NCBI GenBank assembly: GCA_948567375.1
Contig: OX419755.1
Coordinates: 129,001-193,000, forward strand
DNA from: Lunularia cruciata
Lineage: Eukaryota > Streptophyta > Marchantiopsida > Lunulariales > Lunulariaceae
DNA length: 64,000 nucleotides
Reading direction: 5' to 3'
Both the position numbers and the translations under genes were made by a program. The notes below the pieces were generated by a model. It was not told where the DNA came from and ran no database searches. It was given only the letters and a program-made list of their open reading frames with translations. Below are positions 20,227 through 46,458 of this stretch, piece by piece; position 1 is the stretch's first letter, and each line of letters starts with the position of its first letter.

Positions 20227-23034
20227 CCACAAACAAGGCTCTCAATTTAGAGAAAGCATTTCCTCCCATGTTTACAAGCACTCTTCCAAATCTTCAGATT
20301 CAAGTGTTGTGTTTTTTCAAGGCAAGAAATTTTACCTAGAGAAACCCATCTATCCACCTCAGCACCACACCCTTTGGTTGTGCAAGCTTCCTCTACAACA
20401 ATACCTATCCTAGCTCTTGCTACTCTTATAGCTACCACTACAATGGCATCAGCTTTAGGAAGAGGAAAAAATTATGTATCTTCTAGAACAATAGTATTCA
20501 TAGCGCAAGACAACTTTGAATCATTCTTTTGCATGTTTGAGAAAATCTATATGGCACAAAATATCATGGATGATATTACCATGGTATGACAAATTGGCCA
20601 AGGTGTCATTGGCATTATGAAACACTAGTTTATTGGCTTAGCCTCTACCATGAGAACAAGTTATGCATTAATACGAGCTAAAAGGTGACAAGAATACACT
20701 TTGCCAATGTAGTTAGAACAACTCAAGGACAAGATAAATAGGCTCTACAAAGGACACAATGAAACAATCACATCAACTCTTAATAGGTTTAAGGATGTGC
20801 TATTTGAGAATGCTAAAAAATTCCTCATCTACAATAAAAATACTACTCTAGTTCAAGCATTCAAGGAAGCACAATGTTGGGCTCAAGCTAACAAGCAGGA
20901 CATGGCCTTACCAAACCCATGCCCTATAATACCAAGATTCAAAGTGAATGTAATCCACAACTCCTATGATGCTACTCAAGGATTCTAGCAACCAAGTTAA
21001 TTTATGGAGGAACTCTCACAATTGCACCGGCTCAACAGGTAGTAACACAACCAACACATGTGTATGATCATGTGTGCATATCAATTCTTATAGTTACTCT
21101 TCCAACTCCTTGACAACTCCTTGAGCTACCAATGTTCTTGTAGCAAATACATCTTGGTGAAGTTGGAATGTCTCATGAAACTTCACTTAGCACAATAGCC
21201 TCAAGAGAAGAATCTAGTGAACATTGTTACCATGAGAGAGATTTCTTGTACACTTTATCTAGAATGAGGGCAAACAAATGCTCAGCATGCCACCCTAGAC
21301 ATTCCTAATTACTATGTCTATTGTGGGAAGTACATACATATCATGGCAAATTGCAGAACACTTAAGAGATGCCAAGAGCCCTGAGAAGAAAGAGCACATG
21401 TTGTAGATTCTATTCCATAGCATACCAACTTCAACTAGCACTTACAAGATCTACTCTTTTGAGGGGAAAGAGGAAATGGACAAGATAGATGACCTCCTAG
21501 ACCCAATAAATGCTATCACATTTGCAAGGAGAATCACTATGCAATCAAAGTCCCAACAAGCCTGCCCATTGCTCATTCTACTTTGGAGCCCATACCATGG
21601 CATAATGCCCAAACTTGCAGAATTTATTACTCAAGCTAGAGGAGTGCCCATGTAAAATCAACCACAAAATAATGATGGTCATAACAAAAATGTGCATTTC
21701 ATTGTAATTGAGGAAAGTTCTCCCAAAAGCAATACAATGTCAACCAATGAAGGTGCTATTATAGAGGCAAATGTGTTCTGACAACCCGCGCCCATACTTA
21801 TGTTGTACATGATCTGGAAAAAAACTCTACTTTTAAGAGCTACTCCTTTGGGAGCTTGGATGATGAAGCTATGCGGATGAAACCTGTTAGCATGCTCTGG
21901 AAATGTATAGGGTTGCAATCCCTATGTTTTACAATTTGGAAAAATAGCCACCAACTTTGGTGGTACATTGCTATGAAATTATTGCTGATCTGGCCAACAT
22001 AAGAACTAATATCACTATCAACAAATTTCCTACATAAATCAAAGGAAGCTCATAATTTCCAACACAAAGAACAACCCATAGTGTGCTTCAAGGATATGCT
22101 AATTGAGACTGTTCACTTGTAGTGATGTGATCACATAGACATACCATTGACTCCAACTATTGGAATCTTGCAAAGCATTGTGGTTGACACAATTCTAATG
22201 GATCATCATGTGTTTTACACTCAGTCCATGACCCAAATATTCCCATAAGAATCCAAGGGACTGTCATCCCAAATTATTGCATCAACTTTGGATCCTTAGT
22301 GAATATAATGACTAAGGGTGTTATGGAAATATTGGGATTGAAAGGAATGGCAAAGACTTCCACCCTCCTCTAAATGGGCAATGAGAGAAGACATTGCACT
22401 CTCAAAGCATTGTCCAAGGTCTTGACACTCATGGTGAGCAGACCTTTTTGGTCAACTACTTTGATAATGGATACTCCAACTTAGCACAATTTCCACTTTT
22501 ATTGGGAGTTCCATGACTACAAGAGGCTTATGTGGTCTTATCTTGGTGCAATAGTAAGTTAACATTCAAGAGAAATAAAATCACATTGTGTTTCCAATGT
22601 ACCTAATAGAATCTATATCAAGCTTGGATCACAAAGGAGAACCAAGTTTTAGCATTGATACCTAGAGCTCAACAATTTTGATAGTGATAAAGAAATCACA
22701 AATGCCATCACAAACTGTTTATTTATAACCAAGGAAGAGATGAGTAGACATGCTATATCTAATTAGCAAAAACCAACAAACTCACATGGCCTTAATCTCC
22801 CACTCTTCCATCCTAATCACAAATTATTCTTGGCATGAATGCTTCCATGAACCCAAAGGATACCTCCTTAGACTCAAAGGATGGTTCCCTTAATTCTGAT
22901 GGTGGATCTTTCTCCTTGTCTTACACACAAGGACATAACCGTGAAGCTAGGGCAAGCTCCTACTTTTTTATTGAAGATGATATTGATTGTCAAGACAAAA
23001 AGTTGGATGAGGAATTCATGGAATTAGAATGAAA
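20227..23034 (+). pseudogene. Ty3-type gag and protease fossil
   Basis: Plus-strand remains of a further gypsy element. The gag part reads QLEQLKDKINRLYKGHNE (about 20710-20770) and NTTLVQAFKEAQCWAQANKQ (20797-20988), then a zinc-knuckle relic YCGKYIHIMANC at about 21315-21355. Further on, 22600-22650 gives IYIKLGSQRRT, like the region after the protease in Ty3 elements, and 22835-23032 is an open acidic linker. RT would follow but B3 sequence starts at about 23035. Heavily broken and old. Confidence 0.55.
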
Positions 23035-25949: not shown

Positions 25950-27020
25950 CAAAGATATAAATTTTTGGGAACAATCTGCTAAGGAACCAAGTAATGGCTT
26001 GGGCATCAAAGCAACCCACCACATTGGATTTCTTGGTACTTGGTTCAGCAATACCATGAACTACTCTATGTAATCTCTCAACTTCTCATTCTTGCCATGA
26101 TCCAAGTCATTAAGTCCGGTGAAGACACTTGTATCATAGTCAACTTCCTAGAATTGTTACAGGAAGTTATTCTAAAGTGCTATCCAATCAGCTTGCATCC
26201 CTTTTGAGTTACCACCTTCAAAATTTTGTCTAGAGCAGACTTGGGAAAATATGCAGCTGATCAGCAGAGTCATGCTCCTTGTTGGCAAAGGAAATCACTT
26301 GAAACTCCTCAATAAATTTGTGAAGGTCTTCATCACCTTTAGGCCCCTTGTACTTTTAATAAGCTTGTTTGGTAACAAGGAAAGACATCATATTGAAAGT
26401 TTGATGGCAAGGCTGCTGAGGTACCAAACTTGGTTGACCTGCGGTGCCTGTAGGTAATTGTGCTTTGGATTCAATTCAAGTGTCCCAAGGTACCAAATTC
26501 AACAATGGGTCTTTGTTGAGGGGTAATTTAACTTGAGGTACTTTGACTTCAACCCAATTTTGAGGAAGAAGGTCAATATCATCAAATTTATCTTCAAGAT
26601 CATGACAAACTATTTGGGGGATCATATGTAAGATGTATTTGCACTCTTTTTTAGTCAAGATTTGTGTTGTCTTCTCACAAATTAAATCCTTCAAATAATC
26701 GTCTCCCTTAGCAATTTTTGAGGAAGTTAGTGTGATGTGTCTAAGAAAATATGCCTATCCACTTGCATCTTTCTTTGTTTTGGGATGAGGAGGTGTAAAG
26801 TAGTCTTTTCACCTAACTTCTCATTTCTGCTATTTGAGTTCTTGCAAGGCTTCTTGTACTTTGTGAAGAAGTTGTAGGTCCAATGCCTCATTTTCTAATT
26901 CTTCAATGGTGAATTGGCTCTTAATTGGTGCTCTTCCCATTTTTCTCTTGATGCAAACATTAATATTTGATAGACAATCAGCATACAAATCAACTTTGTA
27001 TTCTTCCACTCCCAAGATTT
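25950..27020 (-). pseudogene. gag fossil linked to giant-LTR copy B4
   Basis: Minus-strand coding remnants downstream of the B4 primer site. 27042-26830 reads CIKRKMGRAPIKSQFTIEEL. 26694-26476 is ECKYILHMIPQIVCHDLEDK. 26350-26000 reads YKGPKGDEDLHKFIEEFQV, then TGLNDLDHGKNEKLRDYIE and LLNQVPRNPMWW, which resembles retrotransposon gag. Same orientation as the B4 frame. Broken in several places. It is the only internal-region sequence in the window that can be tied to family B. Confidence 0.6.
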
Positions 27021-27041
27021 GTATCCCCGGCAGCTGAACCA
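27021..27041 (-). other. Primer binding site-like sequence next to B4
   Basis: On the minus strand, eight bases after the B4 end (...GTCACA), the sequence is TGGTTCAGCTGCCGGGGAT. It resembles the TGGCGCCGTTGCCGGGGA primer site of Tat/Athila-type elements (tRNA-Asp), with the TGCCGGGGA part identical. This fixes which B end is U5. Confidence 0.6.
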
Positions 27042-28879
27042 AAAATCATGTGACAATCCAACAAGTATTACTTTTGCAATAATCAATAGGTAATCATTTT
27101 TTTTCATAGAGATACTAGTCTAAAATGGTCAAATACAAAGTAAAATGTAACACAATAGTTTTTCTTGGTTTCATCTTTAGCCTCTTGGGTAGAAACCACA
27201 CCCAGAAGAGAGTAACAAGCACTCAATTTGTGGTCTTGTCATATATAACCATCACCCATAAATCATAATTCTTCAAATATCTCCAAATTGATATTGATTA
27301 TGATGATTCAGTTTGTTTGAAGAAGACTACTTCACCGCAAAGTGACTTTGCCTCAAAATTGCATTCTACCTCTCCATTGAAGGCACAACTTCCTTAGTCA
27401 AAATTGTTGTACATCAATCTAGCATTGTATTCATAAATATAGCATACTACCAATAGTACAATTCCTCACAAATTCCTCAAGGCATTGCTTTGATTGCACT
27501 TTACTCAGAATCAAATACATAGAATGGAACTGGAGCTACAAAATCCAACATCTGACACTCTCTAACTACAATTTAAACTTCTCCAAACACTCACAAACAC
27601 ATATATGATTGATACTCAAAATTAAGCTAAAATGATGAGGATTGATACTCCAAATTAAGCTAAAGTTATGAGCATTGATTTCATGCTTTGCTTTACTCAA
27701 GTTCAAAACTGAATATTGAATGTAAAACATTATGAATATATGCTTTTAATAGGCAAAGCACTCAATAGTTATCTAAACTACCTAAACCGCTTCAATTGCT
27801 TTCTACAAATCTTCAGATCTAAATCAACACTCTACCACTTCAAATCTACCACTTCAGATTTCAATTTTTTACTTCTTAATCCGATCCAAATTCTTCTTCT
27901 ACTTTGGCTTCTACACTTGATGCAACTACAAGTGCTCCTCCACTTTGGGTTCATCTACTTCTACACCTTCATCTGCTTATATTACTTATTTATTCTGAAT
28001 GGTGATTGAAGTTATCATTGGTCTAACTTCTTCTTCTTCCTCTATCCTAACTTCTTCAACAACCTCAAGTATTTCACCCAAAGTCACCTACTTCCACTAC
28101 TTCCACTACAACTTTGGGTTTCTACACTCTCCTTCAAACTACAATGAAGATCATCTAAGTTTGCTCTAATTAAATCTAATCTAAGATAGACATTATCTTC
28201 TACTTTAATTATCTTCCTCTCTACTTGTGGTACCCACATTTTTTGGTTTTGACAAGTTTTTGATGAAGAAGTGTATAATTAAGCCAAATTGAAGCCTAAA
28301 GACAAAGAAAGAGAACAAGAATTGTGTAATCAGAGTAAATCCAAAGAAGTCAACTTCATTCCAAAGGAAAAATGACTTGGATTGGACTTAGGAGGTAGAC
28401 CCAAAGTAATTTTACTTCACATTGGAAAATCAACTCAATCCAAAGAACCCATAACAAGTTTCCTTTGGGTCCCGCAAATCAAGAACATACCATTCAAAGA
28501 AAATGGCTACTTTGAGAAGAGTTTAAACTTGAGAGTGATAGGATCAAATCACAAAAACTATGAGTTGCAAGGGAAGATTGACTGAAGAATGACTGAGAAC
28601 CACAAAAGGATAAAATTGCAATTTCATTGAGCAGATTTTGTGATACATAATTCATACCTTGTGCCTCTTAAGAGTTATCTCAAAGGTGCCATACCTACAA
28701 ATCCAATAGTTGGAGCAATTTGCAAGAAACCAAGAGTGGGAACGCATACAATCCCAATGAAGAGTCTTAAGTAGGTTCCTTCACTTGCAATGAGGAATCT
28801 TGCAATTTGAAGGCTAGATGTTATATTATGGATTAAAATCTTGAGTAGACTTTGGATCACTTTTCTGGCTTGGAACTAG

Positions 28880-31223
28880 AATGTAATTTTTTTGGGGTTC
28901 ATGGCAGAAATCACTGCTAGTGATTGTGAGGATGGCCCCAAAACAAAAGGGAAGAGAGGATATCTTCCTTGCTGGACCAAGTCAAATTGGAAGTTTGTTT
29001 TAGGGAGAGAGGCTGTGGATTCATTTGGGATCACCTTCTATCGGAAGTGTGATGCCTCAGAAGAAACTACATAAGTAAAGGGTTCATTTAGCTCTACACA
29101 TACAAAGAATGTGTATAAGGTGGAGAGCTATAAGGACCCAATAAGAAAAAGTATTGTAGGGGCTTTCATGGCAATTTTCAAACCAGAATGCACCACCTAT
29201 GGCATGAAGCAACAGGCTGTCTTCTTTCATCAAATGTTTGCAAGCAAGAGAGTGAACTAGGTGAGGTGTTTTCACCTACAAACCAGACAAATAATCAGAA
29301 ATTGGAGGACAAAGATGCCTCCATATTACTTTGTACCATTTGCTGCTCATTTGTACCTCAAGTTGAATCTGCTCAACTTCAAAGAGAAGAAGAAGATGGT
29401 GTCACATTTCTATCCAAACCTACATCAAGAAGCAAATTCCAATGAGCAATACTATATCAAGCAGATCCAAGGAAGTGATGAAGATGTTGCCAGGATAGAG
29501 AGAGAATGAATTGAGGCAGAAGTTGTTCCAAGTATGATGTCAAAGAAGAGAAACCAACATGAGGAGGTAGCTTTCTTGGTTCAATCAAGAAAAGACAAGG
29601 AGACTTAATCCAAGGCGTGAAGTGGTGGTAGATCCATCATTTGAAGAAGGGTTGTAAGGAGAGGCCAAAAGCAAAGGCAAAGAATTGGGAGAAGAAGAAG
29701 AGGAGCTCACACTACAAAGTCAGGAGTCAAGTGGGAGTGATGGAGAGCCCAAAGTCCAGCAGTCAATGGATGGAGAGGCTGAAGAAGAGGAGTAGAAGTT
29801 CCATGCTCAAATTGAACTCATGGAAGGAAGAGATGGCCAATTCTTGGACCTGCTCAAGGAAGACACTATAGAGGAGCAAGAGGTAGGGCCCAATTTGGTG
29901 TTCCAAAGGGAACAAGAACAAAGAGGAATAGTTTGCAGTTTGCAACTATACAACCAAGTCAAGCAATTGAAGAAGAAGAAAGCTTACAGGAAGTCACATT
30001 GAAGATACAAATATCAAGACTTTGGGGTAAGGCTCCAACTGAAGAGGTGCCAACCAAAGCCAACAAAGGAAAAGAAAAAGAAGAAATCAATGGAGTCATA
30101 TATCTATCAAAGATCATGTGCACATTGTTGTTGCAATTGCAAAAGAAGAGGAAGGAAATGAAGGAAGCATATCCAAAGGTAAAGAATGAGTTGTAGGTGG
30201 TGGAACATTTGAGTGAAGAAGTCTTGGAGCTAAAGAAGAAGGTAATCCAAGGAGAAGAGGAAGCCAAAGTACTTTGGGTTGGTGCAGTACTTTGGAAGCA
30301 AAGTTTGGAGAATCTACACGACGATTTTTAGAAGCAAGGTAGTGTTTTGGAACATCAAGAAGAAGAATTGAGAGCATAGAAGATGGGATTTGAGAAGTTG
30401 AAGGAAGGATACTCACCTAGAAGTAGTGCATTCCAAAGCAATTGCCATTGTGATGGAGCAAGAATTGGAGAATTTGAGGTCAAAGGTAGCAAAGAAGGAT
30501 CAAAGGTGGCAAAGAGAGCTAACAAATAGGCATCATGAGGAGGAGAGATTGCATGGTCTAATCAGGAGTATGGAGGCTCAATTTATGTAGTACATGAAGG
30601 AGAAAGAAGCATTGAAAGCTGAATTTGAAGATAAATTGAACATGTATCAGAACAAGTTGGACATTGAGCACAATAGGGAGAAGGTAGTTCCAAAGAGAAC
30701 ATTGGAACCGGTGGGAGACATTGTGGAGGGGATGAAGGTGATGCTGAGTATTGAGTTTGATGTTAGAATGGAGGAAGCATGCCTACATGAGTTGAAGTTG
30801 CTAGTGCAAGAGACGAGGAAGAGACAAGCAAAGGACACAGATATGAATAAATTACTGATTTTCTTGAGAGAGAGAGGGTAGATAGGAAAATGTTAGAGAT
30901 AGGAAACAATGTTTTTCTCAGATTAGATTTAGTGAGATCAGAACTAGATGAGCTTCGGAGTAAAGTAAAGATAAAAACCCAACGAAAATAGAGAGGTAGG
31001 AGTGTAGGTGTCTTTAAGTGAGTTACCTGGGTCAGCAAAAGAAGTTAGAGCAGAGAAGAAGAAGGTAGATAACATCATAATTACCTTAGTTTTAGTTCAG
31101 ACTTAAGATAGGATAGAAATAGAAGAAGAAAAAGTGGTAGTAGATGAACCCAAAGTGCAAGAAGTGATTGTAATTACATTGGATGTAGAAGCCAAAGTCA
31201 AGGTAGACATGGGATTGGAGTAG
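28880..31223 (+). pseudogene. Family B U3-encoded coiled-coil protein fossil (in B5)
   Basis: N-terminal domain pieces at 28892-29510 (GFMAEITASDCEDGPKTKG, ITFYRKCDASEETT, PPYYFVPFAAHLYLKLNL, MVSHFYPNLHQEANSNEQYY). Acidic and coiled-coil part 29641-30880 (for example EALKAEFEDKLNMYQNKLD). Conserved end VDMGLE followed by a stop at about 31221-31223, some 140 bp before the TATA-like box. The order is the same as in B2 and B7. Unrecognised family; role unknown. Confidence 0.65.
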
Positions 31224-31360
31224 TAACAATTTAAGATCTAAAAGAACAAATATGAAGAAGTGCAGTGTCATTTTGCATTTGCAGATTTGAAGTAGAGAAT
31301 TGAAATAGTAAAAGGTGATTTGTATTTGGAGATTTCTAAGATATAGTTAGAGTGCAAAAC

Positions 31361-31370
31361 CTATTTAAAG
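31361..31370 (+). promoter_or_regulatory. TATA-like box of B5 LTR
   Basis: CTATTTAAAG, followed by GAAGCATTC. The same word recurs at the matching place in B7 (44851-44860) and in slightly changed form in B1, B2, B6 and B8. It lies after the fossil frame and about 0.67 kb before the LTR end. Confidence 0.55.
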
Positions 31371-34300
31371 GAAGCATTCATAATGTGTTGTTGTTCAATG
31401 TTCATAATTCTGAAGTAGAGTAAAGCAAAGTGTTGTAACTTAGTGCTCATCATTTTAGATTAATTCCGAGTATCAATCTTGTGTGTATTTGAGGGTGTTT
31501 GGAGAATTTTGAAGTGCAAGTTAGTGAGTGTGTTGGATGTTGGATTCCACAACTCTGATTTCATTCTATGTTTTTGATCCTCAATGGATAGCAATTGGAG
31601 CAATACCTTGATGAATCCGTGAGGAATTGTAGTGTTGGTAGTATTTGACATTTTTTATCATAGTGTTGAATTGATGCAAAGCAATTTTGATTGAGGAAGT
31701 TGTGCCTTTAGTGGAGAGGTGGAACACAATTCCAAGGTGAAGTCATTTTTTGGTGAAGTAACCTTCTTCAAGAAGAACTAAATCATCACAATCAAGATTG
31801 ATTTGGAAAGAATTTGATGAATTGTGAGTATGGGTGTTATTTGTTTGTGATGAGACTGTGATTCAATGCTTGTTACTCTCTCTTGGTGTGGTTTCTACCT
31901 AAGAGATTGAAGACATGACCAAGAAGAATTCTTTGTGACATTTTACTTTGAATTTGACCATTTCTAAGTTGTATCTTTGTAGGAACAAATTATTACTTGC
32001 TGATTACCACAAAAGCGATACTTGTTGGATTGTCACACTACTCTATCTCTGAAAAAAATTAACAAACTGTTCATATCCATGTCCTTTGCCTTCCTCTTCT
32101 TATTCTTATATACCAGCAACTTCAGCTCATGTAGACATGACTTTTCTAATTAAACTCAGCCTCAATGTTGAACATTGCATTCAACTTACCAATGATCTTC
32201 TCCATTAATCTTGGCTTCTTCTTCTTTGAGATTGGCTCATCTCAAGTCATCTCCTCTTTCAACTTCTCCCAAAGCATCCTTAACTCCTCCACATGCTTTG
32301 CCTCTAATATCTTCTTCTGTTCTGCTTGGTGAACAACTTGGGCTTCTGCACTCTTTATCAGTCCCAAAATCTTTCTTCTTCTCTTCCTTTTCTTACTAAC
32401 TCATGTTGCTAGGCTTGATCCTTCTCCACTAAAATTGATCTCAACTCCTCTTTTTCTTGCTCACTTACCAATGCTTTGGTCTTGGAGCATATCACTTTGT
32501 GTTGAGCATCATTAGACTCTTCCTTTAGTTTCTTAAATGCCACCTTTTTCTCCTTCAATTTGGCCTCTTGATATTCCAAAATACATCCGTGTTTCTCAAA
32601 TTATCTTCTAGATCTTTCAAAATATACCATTCAATCATTGCATCAACCCAAAGTACTTTGGCTTCTTCCTCACCTTGCGTCAACTGTTCCTTCATTTGTG
32701 AGACTTCATTGCTCAAATGCCTCACCACTTAAAGCTCATCCTTCACCTTTGAATGATCTTTCTTTATCTCCTTCATCTTTTCTTGCAACTACAATAGTAA
32801 GGGTATGTGACAAATCGTTCACTCCTCTAAACTCTTCCTCTTCTTTGTCTTTGGTAGGCAATTCTTTTGCTAGAGCTATACCCTAATTTCTTGATCTTGT
32901 CACCTTCAAATTGACCTCCTCTTGCTTTCTTCATCCTCTTTGGCTTGCTTGGTCCTACACTTATATGGTGTTAACTTCTTGATCACACCCCTCTTTGAAA
33001 TACCAATCTTGGCTCTTCATCATATTCCTTTGGAATGTCCACTTTAGGTTACTCTAGGCATTGGGTGTCCTTCCATGCATTCAATCTTTGGATGGAATTT
33101 TTGATCCTCCTCCTTGGCCACTTCTTTTGCTGACGGTTGGACCTTAGGTTCTCCTTCACTACTACTGCTCAACTCCTTACTCTTCAAAGTGAGTTCTTCT
33201 TCTTTATAGTCCCCATAATTAGACTCTACCTCTACCTTTGACTCAACTCCCAATTACAAATCAACCATTGCTAACTTGTTCCTTGGGTTCCGTCTTTGAG
33301 TCATTCTCCTTTGCATCACGGACACCATATCCTCAAATCTACTTTATTTTCTTGGAATTGGAATAGAGATGGACATGATCTTCACCCATCAAGTTTTGGC
33401 AAAGTACTCATCTCCTTCTCTTATCTCTATCATGTAATGTTGCTTGTTGTCGTTTGCATCTTGACAAAGATCCGAATGGAAGTGAGATACCATCTTCTCC
33501 TTCTCCTCCAAGTTGAGTAGGTTCAACCTCAAGTAGAGATGTACCATGAATGGAACAAAGTAATGAGGTGGCAAGCCCATCCTTTAATTCCTGATATTTG
33601 TCACATCCTTTGATAAAAAAAACTTTACTTAGTTCACCTTCTCACCTACAAACATGAGGTGAAAGAAAACCACTTGCTGCTTCATCACATAGGTGGTCTG
33701 CTTTGGCTTCAACATGGCCATCAAATCCCCAATGATACTTTGTCTCATTTGGTCTTTATAAGTGTGTACCTTGTAACCATTCTTTGTGCGAGGTGCATTG
33801 AAGTTGTTCTTCAACTCCTTAGTCTCCTCTATAGGATCACACTTCCTATAGAAGGTGATTCTTGCCACATCTCTAGCCTCTCCTCCCAACATGAGTCTCC
33901 AATCTGACTCAATCCATTGAGTTGGATTCCACTCTTTTGCTCCACCTTAGGACCATCTATAAAATTAATGGCAGTAATTTTTGCCATGAAACTTGGAAAA
34001 CTCAAATTCCAATTCCAAGCCAAAACCATAATTCAAAGTAAGCTTAAGACTTCAATTCTAGCTACCATGTTTAGCCTTCAAATTGCAAGATTCTACACTA
34101 CAAGTGAAAGAACCTGTTTGTTGCCCTTCATTGGCATTGTATGTTTTCTAACTTTTGGTCTCTCACAAATTAAACCCATTACTTGGCTCATAATTCTAAC
34201 TCCTTCATGACAACTCTTAAGAGGCATATGATAGCACTTCAGCACTACAGAATTCACTTGACAAGTCTCAATTTTATACTTCTATAGTTTGTAACCATTC

Positions 34301-34647
34301 TTCAATTGAGCCTCATTTAGCACTAATGCATTCTATATGACCTATTCTTGTCACTATCAAATTTATCCTACTCATGAAGTAGCCATTTTTGCTACATGTA
34401 CCTTCTTGGTTGGTATGACCCAGAAAAATTTGTTAAGGTTTCTTTGGATTAGGTTTATCATTTTGATGCAAAGTAGCCTTACTTTGAGTCTACTACCCTT
34501 CTAGCCAGATCCGAGTCTTTCTTCCTCTAACACAAACTTGACTTCCTTGGGTGCAAACATACACTTCTGCTCTTCTTTCCTTCATTTGGCTTCAACAATA
34601 CACTTCTTCTCTAAAAAAAACAAAATCCAAAAAATGTGAGTACCATA

Positions 34648-34729
34648 TTCCATGTTCTAATTCTAATGCATTGCCTAATGCTTCCTCACTTCTAGATATT
34701 CTAATGAGCATACCCTTGTTAGTGGCACT
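34648..34729. other. Short spacer between B4 and B6
   Basis: 82 bp of unidentified sequence that ends in GCACT, the target duplication of B6. Confidence 0.4.
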
Positions 34730-37700
34730 TGTGACAACCCGGCAAATATCACTTTTGTGGTAATCAGGTTAGTAAAGTTTGTTCCCGCAAAGATACTTTT
34801 CAGAATTGGTCAAATACAAAATCAAACAGTACAATCTCAGTAATCCTTGGTTGCGTCTTTAATCTCTCAAGTAGAAACTACACCCAGAAGAGAGTAACAA
34901 GCTCACAATCTTGACAACTTGCCACAAATCTACGCATCCATAATCACAACATACCAAATTCTATCCAAACAAATCTTGATTGTGATGATTCTGATTCTCC
35001 CAAAGACGGCACTTCACTACAAAATGACTTTGCCTCAGAATTGTGTTCCATCCTTCCACTGAAGGTACAACTTCCTTGATTGAAATTGCTTCACATCAAC
35101 ACTACGCTACACTCACAAATGCAGAATACTACCAACACTACAATTCCTCTCAGATTTGTCAAGGCATTGCTTTGATTGCACTTCACTCATGATCAAACAC
35201 ACAGAATGAAGATCAAGGTTGCGGAATCTAACAACAAACAAACACACTGATTTGCATTTCAAAATTCTTCACACACTCACAAACACACACACAAAGTTGA
35301 TACTCGGAATTAAGCTCAAACAACGAGCACTACAATCAGTACTTTGCTTTATCTATCTTCACAAATATGAATACTAAACAACATATGATTGTGAATGCCT
35401 CTCTTAAATAGTAAAGCAATTGACAATTACTAACAACTATACCATTCTACAACAACTTTTTTCTACCTGCAAATCCAAACTAACAATGCACCTCTTCATA
35501 TCTCAAAATTGTTACTACTCCGATCTAATGTCAACCTCGACTTTGGCTCCCAAACCCAATGATCCCTTGATAATTTCTCCATCATTGGGTCTATCTAATC
35601 CTACTCTCAACTCTTCTATTTCTACAATTTCTTCACTACAAACTACAATTGAGGTCTCGGGTAATCTTTCTAACTCTTTATCTCCCGACCCAATCTTCTC
35701 TAATGTCTCAAATAACAACTCCGAAGACACCTATACTCCTACTTCTGCAACATTGGGTCTTCTTACTTCTTGTACCTCACTACAAAGTTTGTCTAACTCC
35801 GTCCTAACAAGATCCAATCTGAGACACACATTATCTCCTACCTCTAACATCTTCCTATCTACATGTTCTTGCAAACAAATTGATAAATTATTCAACTCCG
35901 TGCTCTTTTCCTTTCTCTTGCGTGTCTCCTGCACCAATAATTTCAGCCCATGCAATCTTGCTTCCTTGAGTTTACCTTCAACTTCCGTGCTCAGCATTGC
36001 TTTGATTTCATTGACTACCATATTGACTTCTCCTATGTCTACGAGCTTCTCCTTCTTCCTTTCTTCCTCTAATTCATTACGATACATCTGGAGCTCGTCT
36101 TCAAATTCAGCCTTCAATGCCTCCTTCTCTCTCCTATTCACAAAGATTTGCTCCTCTGCTACCCGCACCAATCCTCACAATTGATCTTCTTCTCTATTGC
36201 GCCTTGCAAACTCTTGCTGCTAGGCTTGATCTTTCTTAGTGGCCTTCTTCTTGAGACTCTCCAACTCTTGCTCCATCACCGCTATACTTGCTTTTGAGTG
36301 GATAAACTCTACTTGGGCATCTACAATTTCTCCCTTCAACACTACAACTAATGCAGTCATCTCCTTTGCCTCCTTGTGGCTCTTTACTAGATCCTCCCTC
36401 ATCACTTCAAAGTGCTTACTCCGAAGAACCTCCTCAACCCAAAGTTCTTTGGCTTCCATCTCCACCCTCATCAAGTTACTTCACAACAACAAGGTTTCTG
36501 CACTCCAGGTCTTCATTACTACAAACTCATCACACACCTCAAGATTGGCACTTACCGTCTCCATCTTCTTTTGCTGCAGGAATACCAACATTGGACATAC
36601 TACTTTCAACAAATACTCCACTCCTTTGCACTTCTTGTCATTGGCTCAGCCTTTGTGTTCCGACCACTCTACTTCTTGCACCTTGCCCCGAAGTTGCGAT
36701 CTTTGTACTTTCAAGGTTTCTTCATTTGAGCTTTCCTCCTCTTCCATGGCAACTTTACTGGGCCCCACCTTGGCTGCAGCCATAACTTTCTTCCCTTGGC
36801 AGTCTGGGGTTGTGCCACAACTTCCTCTTCCTTCTTCTTCTCACTTCCTTGTTCAATTGTCAAAACTTCGGGACTTGGCTTCCCTACCTCCACCATTGGC
36901 TTTCATGTTTGTTGAGCCTCCTCCTTGCCTTCATTGTCATTGCTCAATTCTTCACTTTGCAGCATGAACTCCTCTTCTTCTCCTGACTTTTCTTCCTTCG
37001 ATCCAGTTTCTCCTTTCAACTCTTCTTCCGATTCCGGCATGGCTTCTTTCGTCTTCACCATCACGGCCGTTAGGTTAAGCTTCGGCACTTTCTAGGGCTG
37101 GACTGTCGCAAGACAACTCTCAGGCTTGGCTCTCTTTCTAGCCGTTGGAATGTCAATTGCTACAACTTTCTCCTTCCCCCTCTTCTTGTAGTACTCATCT
37201 CCATCTTGCACTCTCTCCATATAATATCGCTCATCTACATCTGCCTCCTTCCGCAAATCTGGATGAAAGTGTGAATGCATTTGATTTCTTTCTTCCAAAG
37301 TTAGCAAGTTCAACCCAAAATAAAAGTGCCCTGCAAAGAGCACAAAATAATGCGGTGGCATATCCATCCTCCACCCCAAAATCATCTGCCCTACTCTCTA
37401 ATGCAAACATTTTGCCCAATCTACTACCTCTCCCGCAAACATTTGGTGAAAGAACACAGCCTGTTGCATCATAACATAGGTGGTTTGCTCTAGCTTGAAC
37501 ATTGTCATCATTGCACTAACTATCCCTCTCCGCTTGGAGTCTCTATAACTATCCACCTTATAACCATTCTTGGTGCGAGATTGATTGACAAATTCCTCAC
37601 TTCCGCAATCTCTTTTGAAGCCTCACACTTCCGATAGAAGGTGAGACCTCCTACCTCTCCTACTTCTCTCCCCAAAACTACTCTCCAATCTGCCTCTGTC

Positions 37701-38468
37701 CATCAAGGTGGATTTCCTCTCTTCCCCTTGTGCTTCGGTCCATCCTTGCAATTGCTTGCCAGATTTCTACCATGAAACTTGGAAAACTAAAGTTCTAGTT
37801 CTAGGACAGGAACTTGAGACAAAGTCTTGTCAAGACTTTGATCCGCACTATTAATTCTAACCTACAAATTGCAAGCCCCCTCATTGCACTCTACTTACTC
37901 ACTTTCGGGGTCATCGTGTGCTTCCTCACCTTCTTCTTGTGGAAGATCATTCTCAAGATCCTAACACACTTGTCTTCTTGTAGATTTGCAATTTGCATTA
38001 CTTCAGGTTGACTCTGAATAAGGACAGGGTAGCAAATGGAAATTGTGCTACTTCCTCACACAACTTGTGATTTTATAGTCCTGTGCCAATCGGTCATTCT
38101 TCAGTTGCTCCTCCTCTCCAGTCTCCGATTTGGTGAAGTTGTTTAGTGTCACTATCAAGAACTTCTTGATCCCAAGGTCATTAATTTCTTCCCGTGTACT
38201 TTCTTGATTGGACCGACTCCAAAGAAGTTTGTTATAGGTTCTTTGGATCAGATCACACCGCCTGATACAAAGTCTTGCCTTCTTCTTCTTCTTCTTCATC
38301 TTTGTCTTTGTGTCTCCTTCAATCTTGACCTGAGGTCAACTTTGGGTTTACTCCAAACACAAGCTTCTTCTTATTTCTTTCCCGTTTAGCATTCTTTGGT
38401 CTTTATCCACGTATTTCTTCTTCAAATTTTCCTAGAACTATCCAAAACAAAAAATTTTAGGTACCATA
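34730..38468 (-). mobile_element. Family B copy B6, solo giant LTR (3,739 bp)
   Basis: Starts TGTGACAACCC, ends TAGGTACCATA on the plus strand. Flanked by GCACT on both sides (34725-34729 and 38469-38473), an exact 5-bp duplication. Coding orientation minus. TATA-like box at about 35400-35412 on the minus strand. Carries the family frame with relatively long open pieces; broken. Confidence 0.92.
35515..37840 (-). pseudogene. Family B U3-encoded coiled-coil protein fossil (in B6)
   Basis: From the N-terminal side: 37385-37092 has MDMPPHYFVLFAGHFYFGLN and HPDLRKEADVDERYYME. 37088-36711 is acidic, low complexity. 36474-36220 is an 84-residue helix-rich piece (VEFIHSKASIAVMEQELESL). 36171-35731 is a 146-residue open coiled-coil stretch with KLLVQETRKRKEK and HVDRKMLEVGDNVCLRLDLV. 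35730-35515 is the C-terminal part (SSELLFETLEKIGSGDKELE, ending VEVDIRSE). The longest coherent C-terminal half in the window. Function unknown. Confidence 0.68.
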
Positions 38469-40230
38469 GCACTTAAAATGCAACAACGTGGTATCATTCT
38501 TATTTGTAATATCACAGTAAGAAAGTCTCCCTAAAGATAAAATTTAAATATGACTAAAAACAATGTAGAAGTGTCACAATGATGACAATCAATTGTTTTC
38601 TATTTAATCTCTTGAGCAAAGTCATTCCCAAAAGAGAGTATTCGCACCCTATGGGCATACAACAAAAATATCAACAACCACTCATCACTTTTGTGGTAAC
38701 TATAGTCCAAAGGACTCTTAAAGGTGATGGATCACTAATAATAAAGGTCACTTTGCTCTAAAATTTCCTTACCCTCCAATTAGCCAAACTAAATTCTGTC
38801 CTACTATTATCATGACCATTTTATGATTTATCCTCTACACCATTATTACAAACATTGGGTAAAAACACAAGATAAACCAAAAGCAAAGTGTCTCACAAGT
38901 GGTAGGATGAAACATGCAAACTAAATTAGAGTCAGATCTTCTAAAGGTCCTATCACCTATAACTGTAACATAGCAGGCTACCCTTCCCAAGACACACTAT
39001 GGTACATGAGAATGATTCCTACTATTTAGTCTCCCAATTCATGGTACTTAACAATATCCAAGCTTGTTAAAGTCAATTATGCTATCATTCTTGGCTTATG
39101 TAGAGCACTTAGAGGTCCTCTCTCTAGTTCCATATGAATGATTATTTCATTCCAATGCTTACACCTTTATGCCAAGATTTCTTATGTCTAATTGACTATG
39201 TAGGCAAACATTCATACACAAAGAAGCCACATACACATACACACACTCAACCATCTTGATGGCTCATTTATACAAAGACAGAATGTATTAAATAACACAA
39301 TAAATATTGGGTCTAAGTTCTACATGGATTTTTTATTTACACTAAGGTCTAGAAACTATTTACATATACAAAGTGCCTTGGCTTTGACTACAAGATGTGA
39401 GTGAAATATGAGATAAAAATGAACTATGAGATGGGTTGATTGCTATTAAGGTTTCCATATCATGTAAGGCATCTTTGAGGTTGTTAGTCATCATACGATT
39501 TAAAAAAGCATTTGTTCTAATTGTTCAAGGATTGAGTTGCAATATGTTCTATGGTTATGAGAAGACCCTTGTGCTTTTTTGTTAATTTATTGTGGTCTTG
39601 TTGAAGTTCTGATTTCAGATCCTCTCATACCTTTTTTCTAATCTCATCCACCTTCTCTCATGCTTGTTTCACGCTCATAATAGGTTCTTGGATACAAAGA
39701 TCTGTGAGCTCTTTCAAATTGTTGCACTTTTTCTTGCCCTGTAGCTATTTTCATACTAGCGGCATCCAATTTTTTTTGGATGGCTGTTAGCTCTTTGTCT
39801 TGTACCTTCATCTTCTCTTCATGGTGGGTTCATTCTTCAAAAACCCTTTTTGTCTCACATCAACCTCTACTTGTAGGTATAATAAGATGACTTCATGTTA
39901 TTCTTGTAATGCCAATTCTTCTTGTTAAAACTTCTGAAGCAATTAGTCTTTCTCCTTTGATGGTGCAATCTCCTTGGTGAGTTTATTGTTGGTGTTGCTC
40001 AGTTTGATACAAAGCATGGCCCTGTCTTTGGTCATTGTGCTTGTTTTGTTATGATTGTACCTTATGAGCTTAATTGGCTTGTCAATTGCAAAGTCCAAAT
40101 CTTTGTAAAAGGGCCAATCTCCTCCAATAGATCCATCATTGGCATTGCTACATATACAACATATACTTACATCAACTATGCCATCACATTATTGTTGTAT
40201 TTCAGACATTGGCAAATTTCATCCATCATA
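38469..40230. other. No recognisable gene; possible diverged family B relative
   Basis: Bases 38580-38660 ('tttctatttaatctcttgagcaaag..cccaaaagagagta') are similar to the R-U5 region of family B ('tcctctttaatctctcaagtagaaac..cccagaagagagtaac'). Minus-strand translation of 39500-40030 is Lys/Gln/Glu-rich and helix-like (DEIRKKVXEDLKSELQQDHN, with X for a stop). This may be an older, diverged relative of family B. Confidence 0.3.
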
Positions 40231-40239
40231 TATGGGTTG

Positions 40240-41037
40240 TCATCGTGTATTAGAGATCATACTAATGGTGTTTTGTGAGGAAGATCCTCCATCTTGATGG
40301 GTTGTCTTGTTTGCTACCTTAGTGTGTTTGTCCTCTTCTTGTAGGTGGCCCATGGTAAAATCTTCTTCTTTAAGCTTCCAAGCTTTTGTTTCATGCTCTT
40401 GCATTTTCTTAGCCAACACAAAACCTTGGTTGGTTTGTGTTTCCAAAATAACATTTACAATGTTCATAGTAGGACTCTTAGGCCAACAAGATTTGAGGAA
40501 GAAGACATGCATTGGTTTGGGTGCTTTCTTCAAGACCGCAATGGAGGCCCCATTGACATCTTTCATTGGTGCTTCCTCTTGTTCTTTGTAGCTTCATTGG
40601 GAATTGATGATGATTGCATATCATCGTCATTGCCTTCTTGTATCTTTCATTGTTGGCATTTGATGACAAGATGCACATAAATGAGTTGTTGGTGACTCAT
40701 TTGTTCTTGTTTCCAAAGGGTTGTTTCTTGGAGATAGACTGGCCTTCTATCGTAGAGGCCTTGTACGATAGAAGGCCTTGTTTCCACCCTATCTCTAGGC
40801 TCTGCCATGTCCACTTTCACTTGACAAAACCTAATATCTCTTTTGTTTCTTGGAGACCATGATTTTGGCCTTTGTTGTAGGTACCTTTGTACTTAGCACA
40901 ATGGTGTTGTAGGAATCTTTGATATATGAAACCTTCTTAGTATGATCATACTTCTTGTTCACATCATCATACTTCATTATTTCCTTGGCCAAATTGGAGT
41001 GTATGTTAAAATAGGTTGGATGATGGCAATGACTCAA
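40240..41037 (-). pseudogene. Unrecognised coding fossil
   Basis: Two minus-strand pieces: 41037-40831 (HCHHPTYFNIHSNLAKEIMK, YDHTKKVSYIKDSYNTIV) and 40566-40240 (108 residues, VNGASIAVLKKAPKPM, FVLAKKMQEHETKAWKL). The piece between contains LYDRRPVYLQE. Hydrophilic, Lys-rich and helix-prone. I do not recognise a family. It could belong to an older repeat, possibly a relative of the family B protein. Confidence 0.3.
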
Positions 41038-41196
41038 AAATCTCTCCTTCTCCTTGTTTGTGAGAAATCATATTCATCAAGGCCTACAACTCCTAATGAT
41101 ACAATGTGTAGCAAGATGACCCTAGTACAACTCAAGGGAGGGAGTCCAAAGTCATTTAGGAGCCTAAGGAGAAGGCTGTAGGAATGAGAACTATCT

Positions 41197-41764
41197 ATGA
41201 GAAGAAAGTCCCCAATAGAAGATATAGCCAAAACTATGAGTATAAGCACCCCCACATTCCAAATTGCTATAGAACAAGAGGCAACAATTAGAGAAGAGCT
41301 AGTCATCAACAAATACCCAAGTACATTGAGTATGATGGAAGCCACCCATATAATAAACTTGATGGAGCTTGTGAAAGAAGGGGAGCCTTGGAGTCTTGGG
41401 AAGAAGCAACAATGCAAGATATACTTGAATAAGGTATGTACCAATTAAGTGCTTATATTGATGAGGAGAAGAGAGAAAAATGCCAACTCTAGTGACATTA
41501 AATCAAACAATAAGGATGTCACCAAGCAAGAAGCTAGACAATCCTCCCTCCAAAAAGGAATTGAAGTCATTGTGGGGCAAATAGAGCAACGACCCAAGTT
41601 GATGGATGTTGTTGGACCTTCCATTAGAAACATTGACAATTTTACCCAAAATGAAGAAGAAGAATTTCAATTATCACCAAGTAAAGTAGAATTGGTGGGA
41701 CAATGGGCAAAAAGTGCAATTGCATTTGCATCTAACGTCCCATACTTCATGAGTGCATCTCAAG
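41197..41764 (+). pseudogene. Unrecognised coding fossil cut by B7
   Basis: Two consecutive same-frame stretches, 41197-41448 (FQIAIEQEATIREELVINKY, LMELVKEGEPWSLGKKQQ) and 41449-41764 (EARQSSLQKGIEVIVGQIEQ, FQLSPSKVELVGQWAKSAI), charged and helix-prone. The second runs to the B7 border; the TCAAG duplication shows B7 split this sequence, which resumes at 45533. Family unknown. Confidence 0.3.
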
Positions 41765-42151
41765 TGTGGTACCCATATCTTTTTTCTTCTTTTTTTTGTT
41801 GAAGTTTTGAAGAAGAAGTTAGTAAGAAAGCCAAATTACAAAGGAAAAAATGGACTGGTGTGTCTTTGGAGTAAACCTGAAGAAGTCAACTTGGGTTGGG
41901 AACTGGAAGAACTTGGATGGGGTTATGAAGAGGCAAGTCCAAAGAAGGGTGTCTTCAGATCAGGAAGTGAAGGCCGATACAAAGATGATGTAACAACCTT
42001 TTTACATGGCAAGAAAGTACACTTCAAGAAACGGCAGAGGCAAGAGAAGAAGGCCTTGACAATGATAGGAAGCCCATACAGAGAAGAAGTGGAAGTTGAT
42101 TTTGAAATTGATTGAAGAATGACTACACTTTGGGGTAATGTAAGATTGTGA

Positions 42152-44740
42152 TTGCGCAAGAGGAAATTGAATATGTCAAATAGATATCATGTTCCTCTAA
42201 GTAGTTGTCCTACAGTAATGCACGTTAAGAAGCCGATTGAGAGTGAAATTTTCCAAAGTCTAGAAGGGGTTAGAGTGTTGCCTCCAAGAGAGGGGATATT
42301 TTTTCAGTGCCAAAGAACTAGAGAGCAAATCATGGCAAAGAAGGCTAAGAACGCACTTGCAATGAGGAGTTTTTCAATTTGGAGGTTAGATGTAATAGCA
42401 AGGATTGAGGTCTTGAATAGACTTTGGATTACATTTTCAGCATGGAATTGGAATTTTAGTTTCCCAGGAGTCATGGCAGAGATAGTTGCCAGTAATTGTG
42501 AGGAAGGCCCTAAAGTCAAGGGGAAGAGAGGAAATCCGGCTCAATTGACTGAGTTGGATTGGAAGTTAGTATTGGGTAAGGAAGCAGGAGAGGCAATTGG
42601 GATCACCTTTTATTGGAAGTGTGATGCTCCAGAGGAGACTGCAGAAATCCAAAAAAATTTCTTTGCTCCACGTTCTACCAATGGTTACAAAGTAGAGTCG
42701 TATCGGGACTCGATTAAACAAAGTATTGTAGGAGCAATAATGGCCATGTTCAAACCCAAATGAACAACATACGTGAACATGCAGCATGCAGTCTTCTTCC
42801 ATCAGATGTTTGCAAGAGTGAAGGTGAATTGGGCAAGTGCTTCCACTAGCAAACAAGGCAGATGATCATCAATTGGAGAATCAATTTGCCTCCACATTAC
42901 TTTGCACCATTTGCAGCACGCTTCTACTTTGGATTGAATTTGCTAACAGCGGAGGAGAGGCATCACATGATGTCACATTTCCATCCTAATCTACAATGAG
43001 AAGTAGATGAAGAGGAGCGGTATTACATGTCACACCTATGAGCCAACGATGATCACTTTACCAAATCGGGCAGACCGAGAGGGTGGAAGGAAGAAGTTTG
43101 AAGACAAAGAAGTGGACTAAACCATAAGAGGTAGTGTTGCCTCAAACACAATGGAAGATCCAAAGACTTTCTTTGCAAGGTAAGAAGGCGGTAAAGGAGG
43201 AGACTTTGGAAACAGAGTTTGAAGGAGAGATAGAGTCTAGAGGAGAAGACTCTGAAGAAGTGGAGCTCACACTACAAAGTGGCAAATTTTGAGGGAGAGT
43301 GATGGTGACAAGGAAGTTCAGCAATCGGCTGAAGCAGAAGAAGATGAAACATTTCATGCGGTGATTGACCATATGGAGGGAAGAGATAATTCTTGTTTGG
43401 AACTAGTCCTGGAGGAGATGGATGTAGAGCAAAAGAAGGAAGACCACAAGGGATGAGAAAGAAATCAACAATGGAAGACCCTGTAGGACCGAGTTCAGCC
43501 GGTAAGGAAGAAGGAAGCTCGGAAGTAGTATCGTTGAAAGTACAAAGATTGAGACTTTGGGAGAGGGCGCCGGTGGAAGAAACCAAGTATGAAGATGGAG
43601 CCTAAGACAAAGAGAGCTTTGGAGGAGTACAATATTTAATGCAGATTTTGACTCCATTGTTGGAGTTGTTGAAGGTGCAGCAAAAGGTAATCCCACAAGA
43701 TTGAATGAAGGTGAAGAATGAGTTGCAGGTGGTGAAGTATCTGCTATACAAAGTGAAAGGATTGAGAGAAAGTGTAACCCAAAGAGAAGAAGTTGAGGAG
43801 CTTTGGGTGGATGTAGTCTTGAAGAAGAAAATGTTAGAGAATTTGCAAGATAGTTTCAAGAAGGGAGGAAAAGAGATGCATTGTCAGACTAAAGAGTTGA
43901 AGGAGCAAATGATGTTGTTGATAAAGATGAAAGAGGAGGTCAGTGAATCTTGCATCGAGATCATGTGAAAGCAATGGCAGCTATGATAGAGCAAGAGTTA
44001 GAGAGCTTGAAGAAGAGTGCAGCAAGAAAGGATCAAGCATGGTAGAGAGAGTTGTCGAATTAAAGCCAAGAGGAAGAAAGATTAAGAGATTTGGTTAGAA
44101 GTGCAGAGCTATAGATTTCTTAGTATGCGGAGGAGAAGAAGATGCTTGTTGTTGAGTATGAAGACGAGTTGAAGATGTACCAAGAAGAGTTGAAGGTAGA
44201 ACAATCTCAAGGGTATGCATCAGAATCAATAAGAGAGTTGTTGGAAGATTGCAAGCCATGTTGAGCACGAGTCTAAAGGAAGGTTGGAGGAAGCTAGACT
44301 GCATGAATTAAAATTGCTGGTGTAGGAAACTCGGAAGAAGAGAGCAAAAGATGTAGATATAAACACTCTTTTGATTTGTTTAAGGGAACGAGTAGATAGA
44401 AAGATGTTGGAGGTAGGAGACAATGTAAGTCTCAGATTAGATTTAATAAACTCAGAGTTAGGAAGACTTAGGAGTAGTGTGCAAGAAGATAAGAAGTCCG
44501 AAATTGCAAAGGTAGGAGTACAAGTGTCTTCAAAGTTTGTCCTTTGAGACATTAGAGAAAAGTGGGTCAAGAGATAAAGAGTTAGAAAGATCACCCATGA
44601 CCTTGATTGTAATTCATAGTGAAGAAGTAGTAGAAAAAGTAAAGGATTTGCTAGTTGAAGATAGACCCAAAGAAGGAGAAGTAATAGGAAGATCATCAAG
44701 TTTGGAAGCCAAAGAAGAAGTAGACATCAAATTGGAGTAG
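42152..44740 (+). pseudogene. Family B U3-encoded coiled-coil protein fossil (in B7)
   Basis: The N-terminal 203 codons (42152-42763) are open: SIWRLDVIARIEVLNRLWIT, FSAWNWNFSFPGVMAEIVA, LTELDWKLVLGKEAGEAIGI, TFYWKCDAPEETAEIQ, RSTNGYKVESYRDSIKQSIV, GAIMAMFKPK. The same blocks occur in B2-B6 and B8. Then HQMF and FHPN relics, an acidic stretch, a coiled coil (43705-44230), LLVQET-like and RKMLEVGDNVSLRLDL pieces, and the conserved end SFETLEKSGSRDKELERS to VDIKLE with a stop at 44738-44740. Total span is about 860 codons. No RT, integrase or protease motif. It does not match the plant mobile domain or an ENV as far as I can see. Broken; function unknown. Confidence 0.7.
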
Positions 44741-44850
44741 TAATAGTTTTGAGATATGAAGAGGTAGATATGAAGAGGTGCATTGTCATTTTGGATCTAC
44801 AGGTTAGAAAATTAGAACGGTATAGTTGTTAGCAATTGTCAATTGCTCTA

Positions 44851-44860
44851 CTATTTAAAG
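44851..44860 (+). promoter_or_regulatory. TATA-like box of B7 LTR
   Basis: CTATTTAAAG followed by GAGGAA, 110 bp after the conserved stop of the fossil frame and about 0.67 kb before the LTR end. Repeated at the equivalent place in the other B copies. Confidence 0.55.
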
Positions 44861-45537
44861 GAGGAATTTGCAATGTTATGTTGTTCAATATTCATAATTT
44901 TTGAAGATAGATAAAGCAAAGTGCTGATTTCAGTGCTCGTCGCTTGAGCTTAATTCTGAGTATCAACTCTTTGTTTGTCTTTGTGAGTGTTTGGAGCATT
45001 CTGAAGTGCAAATTAATGTGCTTGTTGGATGTTGGATTCTACAGCCTTGATCTTCATTCAGTGTGTTTGATCCTAAGTGAAGTGCAATTGGAGCAATGCC
45101 TAGACAGATCTGAAAGGAATTGTAGTGTTGGTAGTGTTCTACAGTTGTGAGTGTAGCATAGTGTTGATGTGAAGCAATTTTGATTGAGGAAGTTATGCTT
45201 TCAGTGGAGAGGTGGAACACAATTTTGAGGCACAGTTGTTTTGCAGTGAAGTAGCCATCTTTGGGAGAATCATAATCATCACAATCAAGGTTTGTTTGGA
45301 CAAAATTTGCTATGTTGTGATTATGAGTGTGTGATTTGTGACAAGTTGTCAGGATTGAGCACTTGTTACTCTCTTCTGGGTGTGGTTTCTACCCAAGAGA
45401 CTAAAGAAGCAATTAAGAAGAACCACATTTGTGACATTTGACTTTGTATTGGACATTTCTGATCAGTATCTTTGTGGGAACAAACTTTACTTACTTGATT
45501 ACCACAAAAGTGATATTTTTTTGGTTGTCACATCAAG

Positions 45538-45889: not shown

Positions 45890-46458
45890 AAAAGGAAGAT
45901 GACATTAAGAGTGAAAAAAATAAACACGCAGAATTGTCGTATCAATTGAAGATAATTGAAGAATGACCAATCAGCAAATGACTATAAAATTTGAGATATC
46001 ACCGTGGGCATTCTGAAATGTCATGAAAATATACTATGCCTCTCAATAGTTGTCCCAAAGGAGTTAGAATCTCAAGTTTTGGGGAGGGTTTGATCTTTCA
46101 TAGACCCAAGAGTGAGGAAGCAAACAATGGTCCCAAAGGGAAATAAGCAGAGTATGGTGAGGGGTGTTGTAATTTTTCAATTGGATGTAGTGGCAAGGAT
46201 TGAAGTCTTGGATAGACTTTGCATCACATTTCTGGCCTAGAATTGGAATTTGAGCTTTCTTGGTTTCATGCCAAAAATTGTTGCCAATGATGTAGAGACA
46301 AGTCCAAGCATGAAGGGAAGAGAGGAAATCCAGCTCAATGGATTAATTCAAATTGGAGATTAGTTCTAGGGAGAGAAGCAAGAGAAGTAGGAGGAGTCAC
46401 CTTTTATTGGAAGTGTGAGTCTTCAAAAGAAACTACCAAGATGAAGAGTTCTTTGAGC

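What the first reader, a model, noticed from the sequence alone, without database searches (positions are those of the whole stretch)
28226..45532. Giant LTRs (about 3.8 kb) that carry a large fossil accessory frame in U3
Eight copies (B1-B8) share ends TGTGGTACCC...GTTGTCACA. The longer ones all contain, in the same order, a globular N-terminal domain, a charged coiled coil and a conserved C-terminus, then a TATA-like box, then about 0.67 kb of R-U5-like sequence. Because the TATA box lies after the frame, the frame sits in U3 and would be carried at the 3' end of the genomic RNA, like sag of MMTV or nef of lentiviruses. I know of no plant LTR family described this way, and the protein matches no domain I recognise.
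Basis: partly seen in the sequence, partly recalled or inferred. Interest (0 to 1): 0.93.

Follow-up and report, generated by a model that had tools for sequence, protein, structure and literature searches.

The report
Retrotransposon with gene inside its LTR
An abundant, ancient mobile element of a land-plant (probably liverwort) genome carries a large protein gene of unknown family inside its 3.8 kb end repeats, so even the leftover single repeats keep remains of that gene.

Summary
The window has eight units of one family, 3.7-3.8 kb when whole. Of six with both ends, five have 5-bp target duplications. All eight carry remains of one long frame, conserved as protein (median pN/pS 0.31-0.36 in frame, 0.79-1.41 out of frame). 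In the host assembly (566 Mb), three of five internal copies examined have a unit on both sides: unit, tRNA-Asp-like primer site, gag, RT, RNase H, integrase, polypurine tract, unit. Two of these are bounded by a 5-bp duplication (5/5 and 4/5); their paired units are 86-87% identical, against about 77-81% between elements. Exact junctions recur: 79 unit-primer site, 304 polypurine-unit. So these are giant LTRs of a Ty3/gypsy retrotransposon. The frame lies between the polypurine tract and a TATA-like box, hence probably in U3, like sag or nef; no RNA was available. In the window, C4 is a 5' LTR with primer site and gag remnant. No relative of the protein was found. Nearest plant precedent: CRM group A, whose pol runs into the 3' LTR. 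The function is unknown; an accessory role is inferred.

The parts
41765..45532 (+). C7: complete solo giant LTR, 3768 bp, TSD TCAAG/TCAAG
28226..32037 (+). C5: complete solo giant LTR, 3812 bp, inserted in C4, TSD CTACT/CTACT
34730..38468 (-). C6: complete solo giant LTR, TSD AGTGC/AGTGC
16414..20221 (-). C2: complete solo giant LTR, 3808 bp, TSD ACATA/ACATG
10327..12292 (-). C1: internally deleted solo giant LTR inside an LTR of another gypsy family, TSD TCCAT/TCCAT
32038..34647 (-). C4, 5' part of a giant LTR (interrupted by C5)
27049..28225 (-). C4, 3' part; this LTR has no TSD and is followed by a PBS, so it is a 5' LTR
27024..27042 (-). primer-binding site TTGGTTCAGCTGCCGGGGA just after C4; 14 of 18 positions match the plant tRNA-Asp type (that motif is recalled)
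25950..27048 (-). PBS plus gag remnant of the same element, homologous to gag of genome copies E1-E3
   Evidence: blastn 65-75%; tblastx E 4e-82, 49-68% aa identity to E3; Pfam gag domains in the E3 copy
23026..25949 (-). C3: giant LTR, 3' end lost
45896..46458 (+). C8, first part (5' end not recognisable)
54706..57558 (+). C8, second part, to the LTR 3' end
42119..44740 (+). fossil frame in C7, from the candidate ATG in TGAAGAATGA to the stop shared by 5 of 8 copies; broken by stops and frameshifts
42152..42763 (+). single open stretch, N-terminal domain, 203 aa; no relatives found
44851..44859 (+). TATA-like box CTATTTAAA of C7, after the frame
44860..45532 (+). R-U5-like non-coding 3' part of C7, the best conserved part of the unit

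Best explanation
The units are giant (about 3.8 kb) LTRs of an old, very abundant Ty3/gypsy retrotransposon. Shown: order LTR - PBS - gag - RT - RNase H - integrase - PPT - LTR, 5-bp target duplications, and a long frame (about 2.6 kb, some 870 codons) inside each LTR that was conserved as protein. Inferred: the genomic RNA starts just after the TATA-like box, so the frame lies in U3. It would be present once in the RNA, at the 3' end, and be copied into both LTRs by reverse transcription. Because the polypurine tract sits right after pol and before the frame, the frame behaves like a gene behind pol (the env/accessory position) that fell inside U3. The product would be an accessory protein, translated from a spliced or 3' RNA, as sag and nef are. 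Recombination between the long LTRs removes gag-pol and leaves solo LTRs, which still carry the frame. What the protein does is not known; a regulatory or chaperone-like accessory role is a guess.
For: TSDs and ends. Coding constraint. PBS directly after the LTR in L013, E1, E2, E3 and window C4. In E3, gag PF03732 and PF19259, and RT end, RNase H and integrase zinc domains above the curated cut-offs, integrase core below it, in that order before the 3' unit; E4 similar. RT, RNase H and integrase zinc domain before the unit in L025/L026, no core found. PPT before the 3' unit in E1, E2, E3 and L025. Element TSD E3 GAGCT/GAGCT, E1 GCTAG/ACTAG; LTR pair identity 86.4% (E1) and 87.2% (E3), against about 77-81% between elements: sums. 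Genome-wide exact junctions 79 and 304, and 3633 LTR 3' ends, reversed-pattern controls 0. TATA-like box after the stop.
Against: No RNA data, so U3, the transcript start and translation are unproven. The exact CTATTTAAR is missing in 3 of 8 window copies and in 4 of 12 LTRs (E3 both, L011, L013). A TATAAA also lies near the start of the frame in 4 of 7 copies. Between two LTRs of one element pN/pS is 0.66 and 0.48, not 1, so the neutral level of this measure is below 1 here and part of the low ratio is method bias; deep pairs (pS 0.60 or more) fall to 0.32-0.47. The start of the frame is uncertain: one search saw no coding signal in the first ~160 alignment columns, but that test also saw none further on, where one search does, so it has little power. 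Of five internal copies whose flanks I fetched, two (E4, E5) did not show a clean LTR pair.
Confidence: 0.83

Rival explanations
1. The frame has its own promoter near the LTR start, so each LTR, solo ones included, is a self-contained gene, and the frame need not be expressed from the genomic RNA at all.
For: TATAAA at unit positions 370, 370 and 392 in C3, C4 and C6 and aligned with them in C8, upstream of the conserved N-terminal domain. The antisense accessory gene of maize Grande has its own promoter (stated in review PMC7264820).
Against: The four copies are homologous, so not independent. The TATAAA lies inside the reading frame if the TGAAGAATG found in 6 of 7 copies is the start. Absent in C2, C5, C7.
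Confidence: 0.2
2. The frame is the C-terminal part of pol that runs into the 3' LTR, as in CRM group A elements.
For: CRM precedent (PMC3059260); the LTR starts soon after integrase; in C7 the 354 nt upstream of the candidate ATG hold only one stop in phase with the frame.
Against: The codon-phase test, which sees the frame further on, is flat at 41915-42214; the other five copies have 4-11 in-phase stops upstream; the frame is some 870 codons long with its own candidate start. One search's pN/pS upstream (0.81-0.93) is of little weight, since that test was also flat downstream. Raised from 0.05 to 0.08 for that reason.
Confidence: 0.08
3. The unit is a stand-alone DNA transposon, not an LTR.
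For: In the window only C4 has gag next to it; ends are TG..CA with only short inverted similarity.
Against: PBS, gag, pol and PPT between paired units, element-level TSD, LTR pair identity, 79 and 304 junctions.
Confidence: 0.01
4. The frame is a captured host gene or older insertion that was already dead when the family spread.
For: Every copy examined here is broken by stops or frameshifts; no database relative; within-element pairs also have pN/pS below 1.
Against: Protein-level conservation among deeply diverged copies in three separate sections, lower than within-element pairs; shared stop in 5 of 8.
Confidence: 0.05

Closest known systems
MMTV sag and lentiviral nef (recalled, not tested here)
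   Same: Accessory frame that lies in U3, behind the polypurine tract, and is carried at the 3' end of the RNA and in both LTRs.
   Different: Here a plant Ty3/gypsy element; frame of some 870 codons; no sequence relation found; expression unproven.
CRM group A centromeric retrotransposons of plants (PMC3059260, two passages read)
   Same: Plant Ty3/gypsy elements with protein-coding sequence inside the 3' LTR.
   Different: There it is the end of the pol polyprotein; here most likely a separate long frame starting about 350 nt inside the LTR.
Retrosat2, RIRE3, RIRE8 (PMC3485330, passages read)
   Same: LTR retrotransposons with LTRs of about 3 kb or more and an extra ORF0 of unknown function.
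   Different: ORF0 lies upstream of gag-pol, not in the LTR.
Plant elements with additional ORFs between pol and 3' LTR: Athila, Bagy2, Grande, Retand (PMC7264820, parts 1-2 of 3 read)
   Same: Extra frame behind pol, unknown function, some products nuclear.
   Different: There in the internal region; here on the LTR side of the polypurine tract.

Membership tests
LTR retrotransposon | direct LTRs with TG..CA ends and short TSD | tested here: met
   E3 TSD 5/5, E1 4/5; window LTRs 26 of 30 positions. Some copies have decayed ends, TA at the start or TA at the finish.
LTR retrotransposon | PBS after the 5' LTR and PPT before the 3' LTR | tested here: met
   genome counts
Ty3/gypsy (Metaviridae) | gag, then RT-RNase H before integrase | tested here: met
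   Pfam order in L033/L034 (E3) and L036 (E4); integrase core below the curated cut-off in both; L026 without core
Ty3/gypsy (Metaviridae) | RT placed by phylogeny; clade assignment | not tested
   no reference RT set used; no chromodomain hit in the E3 and E4 pieces
CRM group A | pol frame continuous into the 3' LTR | tested here: inconclusive
   codon-phase test flat before the frame and in-phase stops in five of six copies (4-11), but C7 has only one; the pN/pS test lacks power
U3-encoded accessory gene (sag/nef-like arrangement) | frame between PPT and transcription start | tested here: inconclusive
   PPT before and TATA-like box after the frame; transcript start not mapped
U3-encoded accessory gene (sag/nef-like arrangement) | protein made from a 3' or spliced RNA | not testable with these tools
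   no RNA data
Retrosat2 ORF0 group | ORF0 upstream of gag in the internal region | tested here: not met
   the frame lies inside the LTR; a PBS follows the LTR end directly

The most novel reading that the evidence does not exclude
A plant Ty3/gypsy lineage moved its polypurine tract upstream of a large accessory gene, so that the gene became part of U3. Every replication makes two gene copies, and loss of gag-pol by LTR recombination cannot remove the gene. The many LTR copies then act as dispersed gene cassettes of a protein family not seen before, possibly with their own promoter.
Probability: 0.3. Interest if true: 0.8.

Novelty: new variant of a known kind. Interest (0 to 1): 0.62.

Why it matters
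The review of additional frames in plant LTR retrotransposons (PMC7264820, parts 1-2 of 3 read) treats them as internal-region genes; one inside the LTR would be missed by annotation that takes LTRs as non-coding. It gives a plant parallel to sag and nef, shows how an accessory gene can become proof against solo-LTR formation, and adds a protein family without relatives in the searches made. It also offers a testable case of U3 expansion by a shift of the polypurine tract.

Tried and rejected
Rejected: DNA transposon or foldback element (an apparent 8-9 bp overlap of flanks at C1 was the 5-bp TSD plus chance matches). C4-C3 as one LTR pair: they are only about 60% identical and the flank before C3 is not a purine tract. 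An upstream TATA box as the promoter: it falls in the reading frame; kept as a rival. Relation of the U3 frame to gag of the same element: none (best blastp E 2).

Led nowhere: protein searches of the frame (79 and 1569 candidates, none at E <= 0.01 and 0.1, although the same database holds bryophyte relatives of the window's gag P0001); Pfam and NCBIfam (nothing near a cut-off); solved structures; viral contigs (14 and 8 pattern matches, none confirmed); ten paper searches, which gave the CRM, Retrosat2 and additional-ORF papers but no separate gene inside a plant LTR. The pN/pS scan failed as a test, since it was flat also where sees constraint. The ratio of solo to complete copies was not measured: those searches did not complete.
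Full report
What was checked. The window is a nest of old mobile elements. Self-comparison gives eight units of one family. Whole units are 3.7-3.8 kb. C5 sits inside C4, and C8 is split by another gypsy family. The six units with both ends were tested for target duplications: 26 of 30 positions match at length 5, none of 5000 shifted-end controls reaches this (maximum 18), and no other length from 3 to 10 exceeds 28%. Five of the six are therefore solo insertions (one with 4 of 5); C4 has no duplication.

The frame. In C7 the frame runs from TGAAGAATG (present in 6 of 7 copies) near unit position 355 to a stop near 2974 that 5 of 8 copies share. Mismatches between copies follow codon phase through the N-terminal region, change phase at frameshifts, and are mostly without phase in the last 0.7 kb; one window there, with few comparisons, is uneven. 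In three sections the median pN/pS is 0.36 (14 pairs), 0.31 (21) and 0.36 (15), against 0.79-1.41 in the two shifted frames. With genome copies added, pairs with pS of 0.60 or more give 0.32-0.47, closer pairs mostly 0.40-0.78, and the two LTR pairs of single elements 0.66 and 0.48. So the neutral level of this simple measure is below 1, but constraint in the active lineage is still clear. A further scan found no coding signal upstream of the candidate ATG, but it was flat downstream too and carries little weight; the phase test is flat at 41915-42214. Nothing in Pfam, NCBIfam, solved structures or the protein database matches.

The host genome. The window lies in a 566 Mb assembly of 74 contigs. 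The window's open gag (961-3180) has 26 relatives at E <= 1e-5 among the 7999 candidates scored; all 24 that carry an organism name are Marchantia, Sphagnum or Calypogeia. A liverwort is the likely host. Lunularia cruciata (580 Mb assembly, Gypsy bursts; PMC9985172, passages read) would fit, but no name was available.

The partner. The N-domain DNA gave 41 listed matches; 40 of 5432 first-look candidates were scored. I fetched about 20 kb around 10 of these 41; two of the ten loci are near-identical duplicates. Both ends could be located in 7 of 10; the 5-bp matches are 3, 1, 4, 4, 5, 3 and 5 of 5. The copy with 1 of 5 (L013) is followed by TGATACTTGGTGCCGCTGCCGGGGA. So is C4 in the window, in a diverged form; among the unit-end motifs recognised in these loci and the window, only these two were followed by such a site (background 84 of 526,680 positions). 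The PBS matches the recalled plant tRNA-Asp type in 16 (L013), 15 (E2), 14 (C4), 14 (E1) and 12 (E3) of 18 positions. Behind L013's PBS lie a zinc knuckle and an RT fragment, both weak (E 0.022 and 0.028).

Searching that internal DNA gave 47 matches; 40 of 3231 candidates were scored. I fetched flanks of five of the copies. E1, E2 and E3 have a unit on both sides; of E2 only the last 1.3 kb of the 5' unit and the first 0.46 kb of the 3' unit were fetched, and another unit is nested in its pol. E4 has a 5'-truncated unit on the 3' side only. E5 has units on both sides, but the downstream ones are reversed. E3 carries gag domains, then the end of RT, RNase H, integrase zinc and core domains in Ty3/gypsy order, the core below its curated cut-off. 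Before the 3' unit stand TTTGAGGAAGGGAGTA in E1, TTTGAGGGAAGGGGTA in E2, TTTGAGGGAGGGGGTA in E3 and AGGGAGGAAGTA in L025. E3 is bounded by GAGCT/GAGCT, E1 by GCTAG/ACTAG. By summed alignments the paired LTRs are 86.4% (E1) and 87.2% (E3) identical, against about 77-81% for LTRs of different elements; of these, one alignment runs 379 nt into pol, and pieces lying in insertions (one of 94%) or mostly in the internal region were left out. LTRs of E1 and E3 also carry insertions or deletions, so their spans are 6.2 and 3.7 kb (E1), 3.1 and 4.5 kb (E3).

Genome-wide, exact counts on both strands are 79 for the LTR-PBS junction, 304 for the PPT-LTR junction and 3633 for the LTR 3' end 21-mer. Each has 0 matches to the reversed control pattern. 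These patterns differ in length and stringency, so they are no measure of the solo ratio.

Reading. The giant-LTR claim is established, and the frame is inside the LTR. The polypurine tract defines where U3 begins, and it lies soon after pol and before the frame; the shared TATA-like box lies after the stop. The simplest mechanism is U3 coding, as in MMTV sag and lentiviral nef (recalled). The non-coding 3' part is more conserved than the synonymous sites of the frame (mismatch about 0.1-0.3, against pS mostly 0.5-0.9). This fits a strongly constrained R-U5 leader, but I cannot exclude recombination between elements.

Known kinds. The review of additional ORFs in plant elements (PMC7264820, parts 1 and 2 of 3 read) places them in the internal region. 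Retrosat2 has LTRs above 3.2 kb and ORF0 upstream of gag-pol (PMC3485330, passages). The Retand paper (PMC11963269, two passages) also speaks of internal frames. CRM group A is the nearest, with pol reaching into the 3' LTR (PMC3059260, two passages). The paper searches cover open-licence papers only, so a description elsewhere is possible.

Noticed in passing
window 961-3180 (-): A 739-residue open gag-like frame without Pfam match; 11 of its 26 listed relatives (ten of them Marchantia) also carry a C5 DNA methylase domain (PF00145), so a gag next to a DNA methylase may recur in bryophyte retroelements.
   Followed up: no
window 46459-54705: Two insertions of another gypsy family lie about 58 bp apart inside C8: an LTR in + orientation (46459-47148) and a fuller element in - orientation (47207-54705). 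The bases between them read like the U3 frame of C8, so the apparent 1.4 kb inverted repeat is two LTRs in opposite orientation.
   Followed up: partly
window 46459 and 47896: The LTR of that other family starts TGTAACACCC, the commonest U3 end reported for plant Del elements in sorghum and maize (PMC4029996, passages).
   Followed up: no
window 4298-5981: Head-to-tail pair of about 843 bp repeats, 84.7% identical, next to a truncated gypsy element.
   Followed up: no
window 12748-14470 (+): Fossil Ty3/gypsy RT, RNase H and integrase of another family; no match to the internal region of the giant-LTR element.
   Followed up: partly
window 44860-45532 and the same part of the other copies: The non-coding last 0.67 kb is better conserved between copies than the synonymous sites of the frame; cause unknown.
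   Followed up: no
L015+L016 and L018+L017 (C12 near 34.0 Mb): Two near-identical 20 kb stretches in opposite orientation about 31 kb apart, a local duplication; a third hit at 33.87 Mb has the same score.
   Followed up: no
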